Source of the DNA: Rhodococcus sp. IEGM 1409
GTDB taxonomy: Bacteria > Actinomycetota > Actinomycetes > Mycobacteriales > Mycobacteriaceae
Assembly (NCBI RefSeq): GCF_030056735.1
Contig: NZ_JASHKN010000003.1
Coordinates: forward strand, 1-64,000
Reading direction: 5' to 3'
DNA length: 64,000 bases
Position 1 is the first letter of the stretch. The number at the start of each line of letters is the position of its first letter. The position numbers were made by a program, and so were the translations under genes. The notes below the pieces were generated by a model that ran no database searches, was not told the DNA's origin, and worked only from the letters and a program-made list of their open reading frames with translations. This document shows positions 60,483-64,000 of this stretch, in pieces.

Positions 60483-61655
60483 ATGTTTGGACTTTCACTT
60501 CCCACCCTCCCTTTCCTCGGCAACGGTTCCGATGCGAAGAACGACGCTCCTGTTGTCCTGACGTACGAGCAGGTCGAGGAGATCGGCCGCGAGTTGGACG
60601 CACTGCGTGATCGCACCGTCGCCTCGCTCGGTGCTGAGGATCGGGAGTACATCTACCGGGTCATCAAGGCGCAGCGTGGTTTCGAGGTCGCGGGTCGCGG
60701 CTTGATGTACCTCGGCTTCCTGCCGCCGGTTTGGCTCGCCGCCGTCGGTGCACTGAGTGTGTCGAAGATTCTCGACAACATGGAGATCGGCCACAACGTC
60801 ATGCACGGTCAATACGACTGGATGCGTGAGCCCGGGCTCAATTCCGAAGTCTTCGAATGGGACACGGTGTGCCCGGCCGACCAGTGGCGCCACTCGCACA
60901 ACTACATGCACCACACGTACACCAACATTCTCGGCAAAGACCGCGACATCGGATACGGCATCCTGCGTATCGACGACGCGCAGAAGTGGAACCCCTATTA
61001 CCTCGGTAATCCGGTCTGGGCTTTTGCGTTGATGGTGCTGTTCGAGTGGGGCGTGATGATGCACGACCTCGAGATCGAGAACGTCATCCAAGGTAAACGC
61101 AAGTGGCACGACGTCAAGCCGCTACTCAAGGGCTGGTGGAACAAGGCAGGCAAGCAGGTCCTCAAGGACTACGTCATCTTCCCGGTTCTCACGGGACCGC
61201 TGTTCGTGACCACACTGGCGGGGAACGTCACCGCCAACCTGGTGCGAAACGTGTGGACTTACTCGATCATCTTCTGTGGCCATTTCCCCACCGGCGTCCA
61301 GAGCTTCACCGAGGACGAGACGGCTGACGAGACTCGCGGTCAGTGGTATGTGCGGCAGATGCTCGGCAGCGCCAACATCGAGGGAAGCCCGCTCTTCCAC
61401 ATCATGTCCGGCAACCTCTCGCACCAGATCGAGCACCACCTGTTCCCGGACTTGCCTGCGCATCGTTATCCGGAACTAGCTCCCCAGGTGAAAGAATTGT
61501 GTGTGAAGTACGGTTTGCCGTACAACACCGGTGGGTTCTTCAAGCAGATCGGTTCGGTGTGGGGCAAGATCTTCAAGCTCGCTCTGCCGCCCGGTTTGGT
61601 CAAGTCGAAGACCCCTCCCGGTGTTATCGTCGAGCGCCAGCGAACAGCAGCCTGA
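60483..61655 (+). CDS. Membrane acyl-CoA (delta-9-type) desaturase
   Basis: The 390-aa di-iron membrane desaturase has three His boxes: HNVMH (near 104), HSHNYMHH (near 137) and HQIEHH (near 316), and hydrophobic segments between them. It introduces a double bond into long-chain acyl-CoA with electrons from the preceding reductase, as for DesA3 (Rv3229c). GGAGA lies before the ATG at 60483. Divergent FabR-like regulation would match its role in membrane unsaturation. An 81-aa gene follows after 13 bp. Confidence 0.93.
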   Translation: MFGLSLPTLPFLGNGSDAKNDAPVVLTYEQVEEIGRELDALRDRTVASLGAEDREYIYRVIKAQRGFEVAGRGLMYLGFLPPVWLAAVGALSVSKILDNMEIGHNVMHGQYDWMREPGLNSEVFEWDTVCPADQWRHSHNYMHHTYTNILGKDRDIGYGILRIDDAQKWNPYYLGNPVWAFALMVLFEWGVMMHDLEIENVIQGKRKWHDVKPLLKGWWNKAGKQVLKDYVIFPVLTGPLFVTTLAGNVTANLVRNVWTYSIIFCGHFPTGVQSFTEDETADETRGQWYVRQMLGSANIEGSPLFHIMSGNLSHQIEHHLFPDLPAHRYPELAPQVKELCVKYGLPYNTGGFFKQIGSVWGKIFKLALPPGLVKSKTPPGVIVERQRTAA

Positions 61656-61668
61656 GAGGCACACTTTG

Positions 61669-61914
61669 ATGGTCGGGAAATTCGAGCGCCGCAAGGACAC
61701 CGTCCAGGAGTTGACGGAAAGTGCAGCCAACCACGTCGGCTCCATCGCGATGATCATCGCCGGGGCAGTTCGAGACGTGACGCGCGAGATCGGTGACTGG
61801 GTGTCCGACGGTATCGAGATGCGTGAAGCGGCGAAAAAGGCTGCGGCTGACGATCGTTCGGAATCCGTGACTATCGAACACGACGACACCGATCCACCTG
61901 AAGACTGGCGTTGA
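61669..61914 (+). CDS. Small conserved protein downstream of desaturase
   Basis: The 81-aa protein has basic MVGKFERRKDT at the start, a central hydrophobic or amphipathic helix (SAANHVGSIAMIIAGAVRDVTREIG), and a charged tail ending DPPEDWR. No known domain is recognised. It starts 13 bp after the desaturase stop with GAGAGG upstream; a TTG just before the ATG is an alternative. Position suggests a small partner or regulator of the desaturase complex, inferred from the operon only. Confidence 0.7.
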   Translation: MVGKFERRKDTVQELTESAANHVGSIAMIIAGAVRDVTREIGDWVSDGIEMREAAKKAAADDRSESVTIEHDDTDPPEDWR

Positions 61915-61947
61915 TCCTACTGCGCCGCACCCGTTCGGCGTGACCGA

Positions 61948-61987
61948 CGACGTTGCCCTCCGTCCTTTGTGGCGGAGGGCAACGTCG
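61948..61987. terminator. Terminator of the desaturase operon
   Basis: A perfect 15-bp stem (CGACGTTGCCCTCCG, 61948-61962, with 61973-61987) closes a 10-nt loop, 33 nt after the last stop. It also lies just past the end of the minus-strand small-ORF array and could end both transcripts. Confidence 0.8.
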
Positions 61988-62046
61988 GTTTCACGGACTG
62001 CATACCGATCAATGGCGGTGAATCAACCTTCGATCAGCGGGAGATG

Positions 62047-62214
62047 CTAAGCAGCGCTCCCGAGACTCGCCGAGTCGAAGCTGCCGAGCCCGGTGCTACC
62101 GAGACCGCTGCTGCCGACCCCGCCCAAAGCGAGCGCGTTGCTGCTGCCCGCGCTCAGTAGCTGGACGATGATGTTGATGACGATAGGGTCGCCGGTGAGC
62201 GGGATTGTAGGCAC
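62047..62214 (-). CDS. Small ORF 4 of array: 55-aa Gly/Ser-rich hydrophobic peptide
   Basis: Starts GTG (minus strand) with AGCAGG about 9 nt upstream. The product begins MPTIPLTGDP, has a hydrophobic helix IVINIIVQLLSAGSSNALAL, and ends in a Gly/Ser-rich tail (GGVGSSGLGSTGLGS). It has no Lys, Arg, His or Cys. The VQLLSAGSS segment aligns with LQLFNAGS and LQMFNAGSS of ORFs 1 and 2. Unknown family; existence as a real gene is inferred from array structure and ribosome-binding site. Confidence 0.6.
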   Translation of the reverse strand: MPTIPLTGDPIVINIIVQLLSAGSSNALALGGVGSSGLGSTGLGSFDSASLGSAA

Positions 62215-62294
62215 AGGGAGACCTGCTTTCTGTTTCGAGATGTGGTGAGAATGTGAGCGGCAACGGGATCGTCGACGTAGTCGGGACGGCTTTT

Positions 62295-62408
62295 TCAGGC
62301 ACTTCCGGTGCTGCCGAGCGACACGATCGAGCCGTTGCCGAAGCCGAGTGCCCTGGAGAGCGAGCCGAAGTCGATAACCAGGCTGCCCTGGGTGTGCGGG
62401 TTTATCAC
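62295..62408 (-). CDS. Small ORF 3 of array: 37-aa Gly/Ser-rich peptide
   Basis: Starts GTG with AGGA 7 nt upstream. The product begins MINPHTQGSLVIDF and continues SLSRALGFGNG before a Ser/Gly tail (SIVSLGSTGSA). Like ORF 1 it starts Met-Ile-Asn. It lacks the AGS motif but shares size, composition and the LG/GS-rich end with ORF 4. It lies 80 bp from ORF 4 and 49 bp from ORF 2. This is the weakest of the four on motif evidence. Confidence 0.5.
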   Translation of the reverse strand: MINPHTQGSLVIDFGSLSRALGFGNGSIVSLGSTGSA

Positions 62409-62457
62409 GGTGATTCCTGTCTGCGCCGCGACGTTGTGGTGCGAGCGGGTAAGTCGA

Positions 62458-62598
62458 TCAGGGAGCAGGCGTCGTGGGAGTTTCGCCGCCGCCGATCGGA
62501 GAGTTGTTCGTGTAGAGGAAGCTGCTGCCCGCGTTGAACATCTGAAGGACGGTGTTCAAGACGACGGCCAAAGCGCCTGTGGTTGGTGCGGCGATCAT
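62458..62598 (-). CDS. Small ORF 2 of array: 46-aa hydrophobic peptide
   Basis: Starts ATG with CAGGAG 8 nt upstream. The product begins MIAAPTTGAL, then the hydrophobic helix AVVLNTVLQMFNAGSSF, and ends with a polar, Pro/Thr/Gly tail (SPIGGGETPTTPAP). NTVLQMFNAGS is nearly the same as DTILQLFNAGS of ORF 1, strong evidence that both are coding. No basic residues and no Cys. Function unknown. Confidence 0.68.
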   Translation of the reverse strand: MIAAPTTGALAVVLNTVLQMFNAGSSFLYTNNSPIGGGETPTTPAP

Positions 62599-62675
62599 GT
62601 GCTGGCTCCTGGTTTCAGCGGTGGCGACATGGTGGTCACCGTGGTCACCGCCCTCACAGTGTCAGGCGGCTTGGA

Positions 62676-62712
62676 GCGGGCCCCGTGCGAGAGAATCTCG
62701 CACAGGGCCCGC
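62676..62712 (-). other. Strong hairpin between small ORFs 1 and 2
   Basis: A 17-bp stem (62676-62692 with 62696-62712) with a 3-nt loop begins 8 nt after the ORF 1 stop. On the minus strand all pairs form, with one U-G. No T-run follows. It may be a partial terminator or RNA-stabilising element that makes ORF 1 more abundant than the following ORFs. Confidence 0.7.
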
Positions 62713-62720
62713 GATTCGTC

Positions 62721-62834
62721 CTAGGAGACGCCGCCGCCATCCGTCGAGCCCGTGCCGGTGCTGCCCGCGTTGAAGAGCTGCAGGATGGTGTCGAAGAAGG
62801 CACCGAGGAGAGCGTTGTCCTGGCCGTTGATCAT
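62721..62834 (-). CDS. Small ORF 1 of array: 37-aa hydrophobic peptide
   Basis: Starts ATG with AAGGGG 7 nt upstream. The product begins MINGQDNALLGAFF, has DTILQLFNAGS, and ends in a Gly/Ser/Thr-rich tail (TGTGSTDGGGVS). Net charge is negative; there is no Lys, Arg or Cys. It is the first ORF of the array, 43-50 nt below a TATAAA -10 box, and is followed by a strong hairpin. Similarity to ORF 2 supports coding. Unknown family. Confidence 0.7.
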   Translation of the reverse strand: MINGQDNALLGAFFDTILQLFNAGSTGTGSTDGGGVS

Positions 62835-62883
62835 GTGGTTCCCCTTAATTGTTACTGGTTTGCGCGGTGATTCGCACCACACT

Positions 62884-62889
62884 TTTATA
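62884..62889 (-). promoter_or_regulatory. Candidate -10 box of the small-ORF array
   Basis: TATAAA on the minus strand would start transcription near 62877, giving a leader of about 43 nt before small ORF 1. It lies between the PucR-type gene stop and the array, so the array probably has its own promoter. No convincing -35 box is seen at 17 nt. Confidence 0.45.
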
Positions 62890-62960
62890 GCCCGGCTCGG
62901 TGCGGAAAAGTGGGGTCGAGGCCACCATTCGTGGAGAGCTAATAGTGAGGGTGTGAGTGT

Positions 62961-64000
62961 TCACACTTTCGCTGGACGGTTGTCCACATCAGTGCTGGCG
63001 AAAGAAAGCGAGATCATCGCGGCGCGCAGTTTGAGCAGCTCAGAGGGCAGAGCCGGATCCAATCCGGTCAGGGCGGCGATGCGCTTGATCCGGTTGTCGA
63101 CGGTGTTCGTGTGCAGGCCCAGTGCTGACGCGGTGCGCTGGCGATGCTGGCCGTTGGCGAGATGTATGGACAGTGTCTGCAGCAGTTCCGGGTTGCCGTG
63201 GAGTGGCTTGAGTAGGTTGATCAAGCTGTCGCGGCCTGCGCCGCTCCGCGTCAGTTGGTACTCGAGCGCGAGGTCCTCCATCCGGTATGACCGCGCCGGC
63301 AGTCTCAGGCGCCGCACGATTTGCGCCAATTCATGTGTGGTTGCCTGGGCGGCGGCGATGTCTCCGACGGCGGCACTCTCGCCGATGGCAGTGATCTCCA
63401 CGCCGACCGTCGCACGCGCATTTTGGATGATCTCGCACACCGATTTCCAGTCGGGTGTGCCCTCGATCAGGACCAGGCCGCGTTGCGGTGCAGGCGCTTC
63501 GAGCAGCGCCGAGCCGAAGTGGGCCGCGATCTTTGCCTGAACCACCGTGAGATCGCGATAGGCATGTATGCGCTGGTGCGTGCCGTTGCGGGCCCCTGTT
63601 CGCGTGGGCGGCAGGTTCACCATCAGTCGTAGGACGAGATAGCGGGGTGCGAGTTCAATGCCCATCTGGAGCGCGAGTTGGGTGGGATCGTCGCCGTCCA
63701 GCATGGCTTTCACGAGGGCGCCGGCGGAGTATTCGCCGAGTTGGGAACCGGCCGGAAGAGCCGCGAGATAGCTGATCGAGATGAACGAGTGAAGCCGCTG
63801 CGCCAGTGCAAACAAGAACTCGTTGAGATCTCCGAGATTGGCGGAGTCCCCGGCGTCGGCCCGACTGAGGATGAGGGTGCGAAAAGTGCTGATGCCCTCG
63901 TTCGTCAAGCTGAGAATTGCGCTGAGTGGCACGCCTTTCAGTGCCTGCTGGACGGTCATGGTGTGAATGCCGTCCAGGTCTTGGTCGGTGGGGAGTTTGC
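62961..64000 (-). CDS. PucR/CdaR-type transcriptional regulator (5' end outside window)
   Basis: At least 346 codons are present. The reading frame is open to the window edge (KLPTDQDLDGIHT precedes an internal ATG at 63959), so the true start probably lies outside. The C-terminal PucR-type helix-turn-helix is clear: LQTLSIHLANGQHRQRTASA followed by LGLHTNTVDNRIKRI. A GGDEF-like central domain is typical but hard to confirm. Ligand unknown. It lies 126 bp upstream of the small-ORF array on the same strand and is a candidate regulator of it. Confidence 0.85.
   Translation of the reverse strand, partial: KLPTDQDLDGIHTMTVQQALKGVPLSAILSLTNEGISTFRTLILSRADAGDSANLGDLNEFLFALAQRLHSFISISYLAALPAGSQLGEYSAGALVKAMLDGDDPTQLALQMGIELAPRYLVLRLMVNLPPTRTGARNGTHQRIHAYRDLTVVQAKIAAHFGSALLEAPAPQRGLVLIEGTPDWKSVCEIIQNARATVGVEITAIGESAAVGDIAAAQATTHELAQIVRRLRLPARSYRMEDLALEYQLTRSGAGRDSLINLLKPLHGNPELLQTLSIHLANGQHRQRTASALGLHTNTVDNRIKRIAALTGLDPALPSELLKLRAAMISLSFASTDVDNRPAKV

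What the first reader, a model, noticed from the sequence alone, without database searches (positions are those of the whole stretch)
62047..62834. Tandem array of four very short ORFs encoding related hydrophobic, Gly/Ser-tailed peptides
Seen: four consecutive minus-strand ORFs of 55, 37, 46 and 37 codons, each with a plausible ribosome-binding site. ORFs 1, 2 and 4 share a hydrophobic helix ending QLFNAGS / QMFNAGSS / QLLSAGSS, then a low-complexity Gly/Ser tail. None has Cys or Lys, and charge is neutral to acidic. This does not match cationic leaderless bacteriocins or Cys-based RiPPs. Inference: a family of secreted or membrane-active small proteins, surface-structural peptides, or a multi-peptide signal, perhaps controlled by the PucR-type gene next door. 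I recognise no described family.
Basis: partly seen in the sequence, partly recalled or inferred. Interest (0 to 1): 0.82.

Follow-up and report, generated by a model that had tools for sequence, protein, structure and literature searches.

The report
Array of tiny outer-membrane peptide genes
Four very short genes in a bacterium of the Rhodococcus erythropolis group are real, conserved genes, and they look like a new set of the miniature lipid-tagged outer-membrane (perhaps pore) peptides best known from Corynebacterium, which matters because how such peptides leave the cell and how widespread they are is still unclear.

Summary
In detail: four minus-strand ORFs (A 37, B 46, C 37, D 55 codons) at 62047-62834. 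All four are kept in 10 of 28 genomes of the genus, with purifying selection, conserved ribosome-binding sites and a covarying hairpin behind A. A, B and D also occur in four Tomitella-type genomes (C in one). A, B and D are paralogues; C is unrelated.

No curated family matches. Best reading: new signal-less, probably O-mycoloylated mycomembrane peptides working like Corynebacterium PorA/PorH/ProtX, perhaps pore-forming. Support: similar size, charge, tandem layout and Gly/Ser acceptor context; Cmt1-like mycoloyltransferases in the genome; related tiny peptides in a Gordonia-like genus beside the PPK2 orthologue that flanks porHA; a similar C-terminal module on Sec-type small proteins of another genus; no tandem MspA pair in 10 of 10 carriers against 14 of 14 good-quality non-carriers (probably one clade, so not independent).

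Sequence membership in PorA or PorH was tested and not met. Acylation, location and pore formation are inferred. A PucR-type gene adjoins 14 of 14 cassettes; regulation is untested.

The parts
62721..62834 (-). ORF A, 37 aa, hydrophobic helix then FNAGSTGTGSTDGGGVS
   Evidence: identical in five genomes (this one included), 94 % in two, 72 % in three; A/B/D profile strong in 14 of 401 family genomes
62458..62598 (-). ORF B, 46 aa, paralogue of A; contains AGSSFLYT (GSSFL is the ghrelin O-acylation context)
   Evidence: motif comparison from a PMC11066868 passage
62295..62408 (-). ORF C, 37 aa (GTG), Gly/Ser-rich, different family
   Evidence: no profile similarity to A/B/D
62047..62214 (-). 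ORF D, 55 aa (GTG), paralogue of A/B with long Gly/Ser tail
62676..62713 (-). strong GC-rich hairpin without U-tract directly after ORF A; probable processing/stabilising or attenuating element
   Evidence: predicted in 10 of 10 genomes (no shuffle control); covariation on 7 distinct sequences
62861..62889 (-). conserved promoter-proximal block TATAAAAGTGTGGTGCGAATCACCGCGCA upstream of ORF A
   Evidence: pattern in 10 of 10 Rhodococcus-type loci; no sigma-70 consensus match
61950..61986 (.). long hairpin between ORF D and the convergent plus-strand ORF; probable end of the transcription unit
   Evidence: sequence and fold; no U-tract terminator found
62961..64000 (-). PucR-type regulator (423-codon frame, runs past the window end), upstream on the same strand
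   Evidence: PF13556; PucR-type gene adjacent in 10 of 10 Rhodococcus-type and 4 of 4 Tomitella-type cassettes

Best explanation
A-D are real genes for small, probably helical peptides without a recognisable Sec signal. They are probably exported by the unknown route used by Corynebacterium PorA/PorH/ProtX, O-mycoloylated on Ser (or Thr) in the AGSS/Gly-Ser region by a Cmt1 (MytC)-like mycoloyltransferase, and anchored in the mycomembrane, where the helices probably oligomerise, plausibly into a pore. Shown: coding, conservation, paralogy of A/B/D, composition without a basic N-terminus, Cmt1-like enzymes in the genome. Inferred: helix, export, acylation, location, pore, control by the neighbouring PucR-type gene.
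For: Coding. Size, acidity and hydrophobicity match PorA/PorH-type peptides fetched from a Corynebacterium-type genus. Known sites are mostly Ser in Ser/Gly/Ala-rich flexible stretches; the GSSFL motif discussed there occurs in ORF B (PMC11066868 passages). ProtX is 38 aa, without classical signal, modified at Ser37 (PMC5310785 passages). Of four esterase-family proteins compared with solved structures (of 17 in the genome), two have Cmt1 clearly best, 279 and 273 bits against 156 and 163 for PS1. In a Gordonia-like genus 24 genomes carry a 37-aa peptide, 18 of 24 loci have further tiny GSS peptides, whose profile resembles A/B/D (hhalign 87.5 %, E 3.6e-6); 19 of 24 loci hold the orthologue (72-75 % identical) of the PPK2 found in 12 of 12 porHA-type loci (literature order GroEL2-porH-porA-PPK2, PMC5944148 passage). 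Sec-type small proteins in a Nocardia-like genus end in a similar module. Tandem MspA-type genes: 0 of 10 carriers, 14 of 14 good-quality non-carriers.
Against: No sequence similarity of A/B/D to PorA or PorH (hhalign 0.1 % and 3.3 %; NF033925 not matched), nor of the Gordonia-like 37-aa peptide (1.7 % and 1.3 %). The Rhodococcus cassette is not beside PPK2. In the Gordonia-like loci PPK2 lies before, not after, the peptides, no GroEL pattern was found, and five of 24 lack PPK2. Carriers keep other MspA-type genes (two in this genome) and look like one clade. O-mycoloylation beyond C. glutamicum is described as undetermined (PMC11066868 passage). There is no strict acceptor motif, so Gly/Ser tails are weak evidence alone. 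Profile similarity between short hydrophobic peptides could be compositional. No structure prediction could be run.
Confidence: 0.55

Rival explanations
1. Secreted peptide signals or pheromones, sensed directly or indirectly through the PucR-type neighbour.
For: Short, multi-copy, near a PucR-type gene in 14 of 14 cassettes.
Against: The neighbours read are a PucR-type gene, a glutamate dehydrogenase, an 81-codon ORF and a desaturase: no exporter, protease or receptor; A and D are nearly invariant across the ten genomes, unlike typical pheromones; PucR-type proteins are not known peptide receptors (recalled).
Confidence: 0.1
2. Small proteins of the plasma membrane, or lipid-associated surface peptides, not acylated and not pores.
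For: Hydrophobic stretch plus flexible tail; no direct evidence for acylation.
Against: PPK2 neighbourhood of the Gordonia-like relatives, invariant GS after the helix, Sec-type proteins with a similar end.
Confidence: 0.22
3. Leaderless bacteriocins or type I toxins.
For: Tandem tiny hydrophobic ORFs without leader.
Against: No Lys, neutral to acidic; no immunity or transport gene among the neighbours read; no PADLOC match; no Rfam match at gathering score; kept as a set in all ten carriers.
Confidence: 0.05
4. Regulatory leader ORFs or an RNA element whose frames are incidental.
For: Strong covarying hairpin between A and B.
Against: pN/pS well below 1 in the right frame only; four frames and ribosome-binding sites kept in ten genomes.
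Confidence: 0.03

Closest known systems
PorA/PorH of Corynebacterium (PorHA channel)
   Same: Very short (45/57 aa), no Sec signal, acidic, adjacent genes; literature: O-mycoloylated, pore-forming
   Different: No sequence or profile similarity; four genes, not two; AGSS and Gly/Ser tail; neighbours are a PucR-type gene and glutamate dehydrogenase
ProtX (cg2875) of C. glutamicum
   Same: 38 aa, no classical signal, O-mycoloylated near the C-terminus (PMC5310785 passages); phage receptor role reported (PMC9671496 passages)
   Different: Sequence not compared here
Signal-less M. marinum porin MMAR_0617
   Same: No signal sequence; function depends on a modified Thr-rich C-terminal domain (PMC5310785 passage)
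   Different: Not compared here; nature of its modification not settled in that passage
MspA-type porins (PF09203), e.g. R. ruber PorARr/PorBRr
   Same: Outer-membrane channels of rhodococci (PMC9233653 abstract, introduction and passages)
   Different: About 20 kDa subunits with Sec signal; tandem arrangement absent from the ten carriers
Ghrelin and Wnt O-acylated Ser motifs
   Same: GSSFL and Gly/Ser context (PMC11066868 passage)
   Different: Eukaryotic enzymes and substrates; analogy only

Membership tests
PorA family porin (NF033925) | match to curated profile | tested here: not met
   0 families for A-D; C. glutamicum PorA control 83.5 bits
PorA family porin (NF033925) | profile-profile similarity to PorA | tested here: not met
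   A/B/D versus 9 PorA-type peptides, probability 0.1 %; C was not compared
PorH | profile-profile similarity to PorH | tested here: not met
   A/B/D versus 7 PorH-type peptides, probability 3.3 %; C was not compared
PorHA locus | position between GroEL2 and PPK2 | tested here: not met
   PPK2 absent from L001 and from the four Tomitella-type loci; the other nine Rhodococcus-type loci were not searched for it. PPK2 present in 19 of 24 Gordonia-like loci, before the peptides
Signal-less O-mycoloylated mycomembrane peptides (functional class) | under about 60 aa, no Sec/Tat signal, no Cys, neutral to acidic | tested here: met
   (by composition and eye; no signal-peptide predictor was available)
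Signal-less O-mycoloylated mycomembrane peptides (functional class) | Cmt1/MytC-type mycoloyltransferase in the genome | tested here: met
   clear; narrow; 63 has PS1 best
Signal-less O-mycoloylated mycomembrane peptides (functional class) | mycolate ester on Ser/Thr | not testable with these tools
   needs mass spectrometry or probe labelling
Signal-less O-mycoloylated mycomembrane peptides (functional class) | alpha-helical, oligomeric channel | not testable with these tools
   structure prediction switched off; bilayer assay needed
Leaderless bacteriocin | cationic peptide with immunity/transport genes (definition recalled) | tested here: not met
   neutral to acidic, no Lys; no such gene among the neighbours read

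The most novel reading that the evidence does not exclude
A-D form a hetero-oligomeric, O-mycoloylated helical pore that took over from the tandem MspA porin in the R. erythropolis clade (and may be the small channel protein once isolated from R. erythropolis). The 'hydrophobic helix + AGSS + Gly/Ser' module is a general mycomembrane sorting/acylation signal used across Rhodococcus, Tomitella, Gordonia-like and Nocardia-like genera, both on signal-less peptides and on Sec-exported proteins.
Probability: 0.28. Interest if true: 0.85.

Novelty: new variant of a known kind. Interest (0 to 1): 0.66.

Why it matters
Protein O-mycoloylation is established in Corynebacterium and its wider occurrence is called undetermined (PMC11066868 passage); how the signal-less peptides cross the plasma membrane is unknown (PMC12632848 section 11). 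Independent families in Rhodococcus, Tomitella and a Gordonia-like genus would show that the class is widespread and would give comparative material to find the acylation signal and the export route. The array also gives four concrete candidates to compare with the small channel protein reported from R. erythropolis.

Tried and rejected
Family look-ups: Pfam, NCBIfam, PHROGs and PADLOC gave nothing for A-D. Rfam, searched to E 0.1 on 61600-64000, gave one sub-threshold hit over the A-B hairpin on the plus strand (30.4 bits, gathering 46). D was not found in plasmids or phages. Weak matches in long frames were taken as chance without reading each. L046, L047 and L058 (genomes of 8.8-10.3 Mb) were read and rejected: Arg-rich peptides. 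Of five weak hits in short frames fetched from other genera, three gave GSS peptides (G041, G151, G042) and two nothing of the kind (G349, G348). Replacement of MspA porins as a whole was rejected: other MspA types remain in carriers. The alignment mixed strands by my mistake and was not used. The original paper on the R. erythropolis channel (J Bacteriol 2000) is not held; I saw only reference entries and one passage citing it for a pore diameter. Its 8.4-kDa subunit and 45-residue partial sequence are recalled, and no comparison could be made.

Full report
Observation. Reading the window gives four consecutive minus-strand ORFs, A (62721-62834), B (62458-62598), C (62295-62408) and D (62047-62214), of 37, 46, 37 and 55 codons. 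The stated features are right: no Cys or Lys, net charge -3 to 0, pI 4.1 for A, B and D and 6.5 for C. A, B and D align through a hydrophobic stretch ending in (N/S)AGS; C is a different sequence.

Are they genes? The genus search held 28 genomes. The A peptide is found at E <= 6e-11 in 10 of 28; all other matches are at E >= 0.09. All ten carry A, B, C and D in order, each with a Shine-Dalgarno-like sequence, and intergenic lengths vary while frames are kept. In 9 of the 45 possible pairs of these genomes the concatenated pN/pS is 0.065-0.43 and third positions change most; the same alignments read in shifted frames give 0.89-9 (one undefined). The weakest single-ORF dN/dS values are D and B between the close pair G016/G022, 0.96 and 0.72. 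Named members include R. erythropolis NBRC 15567, R. qingshengii and R. globerulus. The window's PucR gene is 98 % identical to that of G013, whose contig length equals that of the R. qingshengii record.

Transcription unit. Between A and B lies a strong GC-rich hairpin without U-tract, predicted in all ten. On seven distinct sequences of the ten (two left out were identical to others, one differs by a base outside the stem) 95.5 % of cells pair and four of 13 pairs change on both sides. Three of five measures exceed all 500 shuffles; two do not (74 and 173 of 500 reach them). Eight of the 24 Gordonia-like loci were folded behind their first peptide gene and all gave stable stems, without a shuffle control. 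A block TATAAAA(A/G)TGTGG(T/C)GCGAATCACCGC is kept upstream of A in 10 of 10. My inference: separate promoter, abundant A, weaker B-D.

Neighbourhood. The gene upstream is a PucR-type regulator (HTH_30), preceded by a glutamate-type dehydrogenase (PF00208). A PucR-type gene adjoins the array in 10 of 10 Rhodococcus-type loci and in 4 of 4 Tomitella-type loci: 75 % identical to the window's in T. biformata, 37-39 % identical and divergently oriented in the other three. T. biformata carries A, B, C and D; in the other three A, B and D were found. A fifth genome of that genus, 81 % complete, had no match. No transport, immunity or receptor gene was seen among the neighbours read. D has no match in the plasmid or phage collections.

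Distribution. An A/B/D profile against 401 genomes of the family gives strong hits (E <= 1e-4) in 14: the ten above and four Tomitella-type; 17 further genomes have only weak hits, E >= 0.0029. Two of these, G318 and G214, led to a second set. In a Gordonia-like genus a 37-aa peptide (consensus MGSAAxFIxDIASGVYDGIVDAIVDQIVGVLTSGSAA) is present at E <= 2.7e-8 in 24 of the 300 family genomes searched. By a simple motif-and-RBS filter 18 of these 24 loci carry further 25-45-aa peptides with a hydrophobic stretch followed by GSS or GSA. The profile of 11 of these further peptides resembles A/B/D (hhalign probability 87.5 %, E 3.6e-6); for short hydrophobic peptides part of this may be composition. 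Peptides of the same look were seen in three other genera (G041, G151 with two, G042), without a conservation test.

Link to known mycomembrane peptides. C. glutamicum PorA (45 aa), PorH (57 aa) and ProtX (38 aa) have no known signal sequence and are O-mycoloylated (PMC5310785 passages); sites lie in Ser/Gly/Ala-rich flexible stretches without strict consensus (PMC11066868 passages). A PorA-profile search of a Corynebacterium-type genus gave hits in 16 of 61 genomes, only two over the curated cut-off; 12 loci were taken, and PorH-like ORFs were recognised beside at least seven. The literature places porH-porA between GroEL2 and PPK2 (PMC5944148 passage). A GroEL pattern was found in 9 of these 12 loci and PPK2 in 12 of 12. 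A PPK2 72-75 % identical to theirs lies in 19 of 24 Gordonia-like loci (one partial, at the locus edge), confirmed as PF03976 in one. There it comes before the peptides, no GroEL pattern was found, and five loci lack it. PPK2 was not found in L001 of the window's genome, the Tomitella-type loci or the three singletons. So the Gordonia-like set sits at a partly porHA-like address, and the Rhodococcus set is tied to it by profile. Direct comparison with PorA or PorH fails both for A/B/D and for the Gordonia-like 37-aa peptide, and no NCBIfam model matches A-D while the PorA control does. I therefore claim 'works like', not 'is a PorA/PorH'.

Enzyme. The window's genome has 17 PF00756 matches. 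Four were compared with solved structures: two have Cmt1 clearly best (279 and 273 bits against 156 and 163 for PS1), one has Cmt1 narrowly best (185 against 171), one has PS1 best (191 against 173).

Exported versions. A weak profile hit (E 0.025) in a Nocardia-like genome led to small proteins with a Sec-type N-terminus (by eye), two Cys and an end such as LLQLLSLGSSTLS: 10 of 118 genomes at E <= 0.01. Of the 11 sequences read, the Ser-rich end is clear in eight and looser in the three weakest. This is resemblance, not proven homology, but it places a similar module outside the plasma membrane.

Porin complementarity. With PF09203, 27 of 28 genus genomes have MspA-type genes. Two hits on one strand within 1.5 kb (coordinates) occur in 14 of 14 non-carriers that are at least 90 % complete and at most 5 % contaminated (in G004 partly as fragments) and in G006 (9 % contamination), but in 0 of 10 carriers. 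Three poor-quality non-carriers (G017, G019, G020) also lack them. Carriers keep other MspA-type genes (two in this genome). Since carriers appear to be one clade (no tree was built), this is suggestive only.

Mechanism proposed. The peptides are made without a signal, cross the plasma membrane by the unknown route of PorA/PorH/ProtX, are acylated in the AGSS/Gly-Ser region by a Cmt1-like enzyme, and sit in the mycomembrane as helical oligomers, plausibly a pore. In C. glutamicum PorH surface assembly needs PorA and mycoloylation, and the export route is unknown (PMC12632848 abstract, outline and section 11). Only the coding status, conservation, paralogy and enzyme repertoire are shown here.

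Literature coverage. Eight searches of the open-access library listed no paper that describes these Rhodococcus peptides; I read passages or sections of some, not whole texts, and most subscription papers are not held, so this is no proof of novelty.

Changes on checking.

Noticed in passing
L096, L097, L133-L156 (Gordonia-like genomes): Cassette of tiny hydrophobic GSS/GSAA peptides, in 19 of 24 loci with PPK2 upstream, stable stem behind the first gene in the eight loci folded; four loci (L151-L154) lack PPK2 and the further peptides, and in the one of them fetched wider (L243) nitrate-reductase-like genes lie upstream (by eye).
   Followed up: partly
L200-L210 (Nocardia-like genomes): Family of about 70-aa Sec-type small proteins with two Cys and a C-terminal hydrophobic segment ending in GSS-type Ser-rich tails.
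   Followed up: partly
L092 (Tomitella biformata): Its cassette is closer to Rhodococcus (ORF A 95 %, PucR 75 %) than to other Tomitella (ORF A 62-68 %, PucR 37-40 %), with a very similar hairpin: possible horizontal transfer.
   Followed up: partly
L215 (own genome, C5:5992-6786): Mycoloyltransferase-like protein whose N-terminal part after the hydrophobic start is very Ser/Gly-rich (SSGSSGSSGSLGS), a possible acylation region of its own.
   Followed up: no
window 61669-61914 plus strand: 81-codon ORF between the fatty-acid desaturase gene and the array; no NCBIfam match.
   Followed up: no
window 62878-62915: Inverted repeat CCACTTTT...AAAAGTGTGG flanking the conserved TATAAAA block (by eye); candidate operator for the neighbouring PucR-type regulator.
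   Followed up: no
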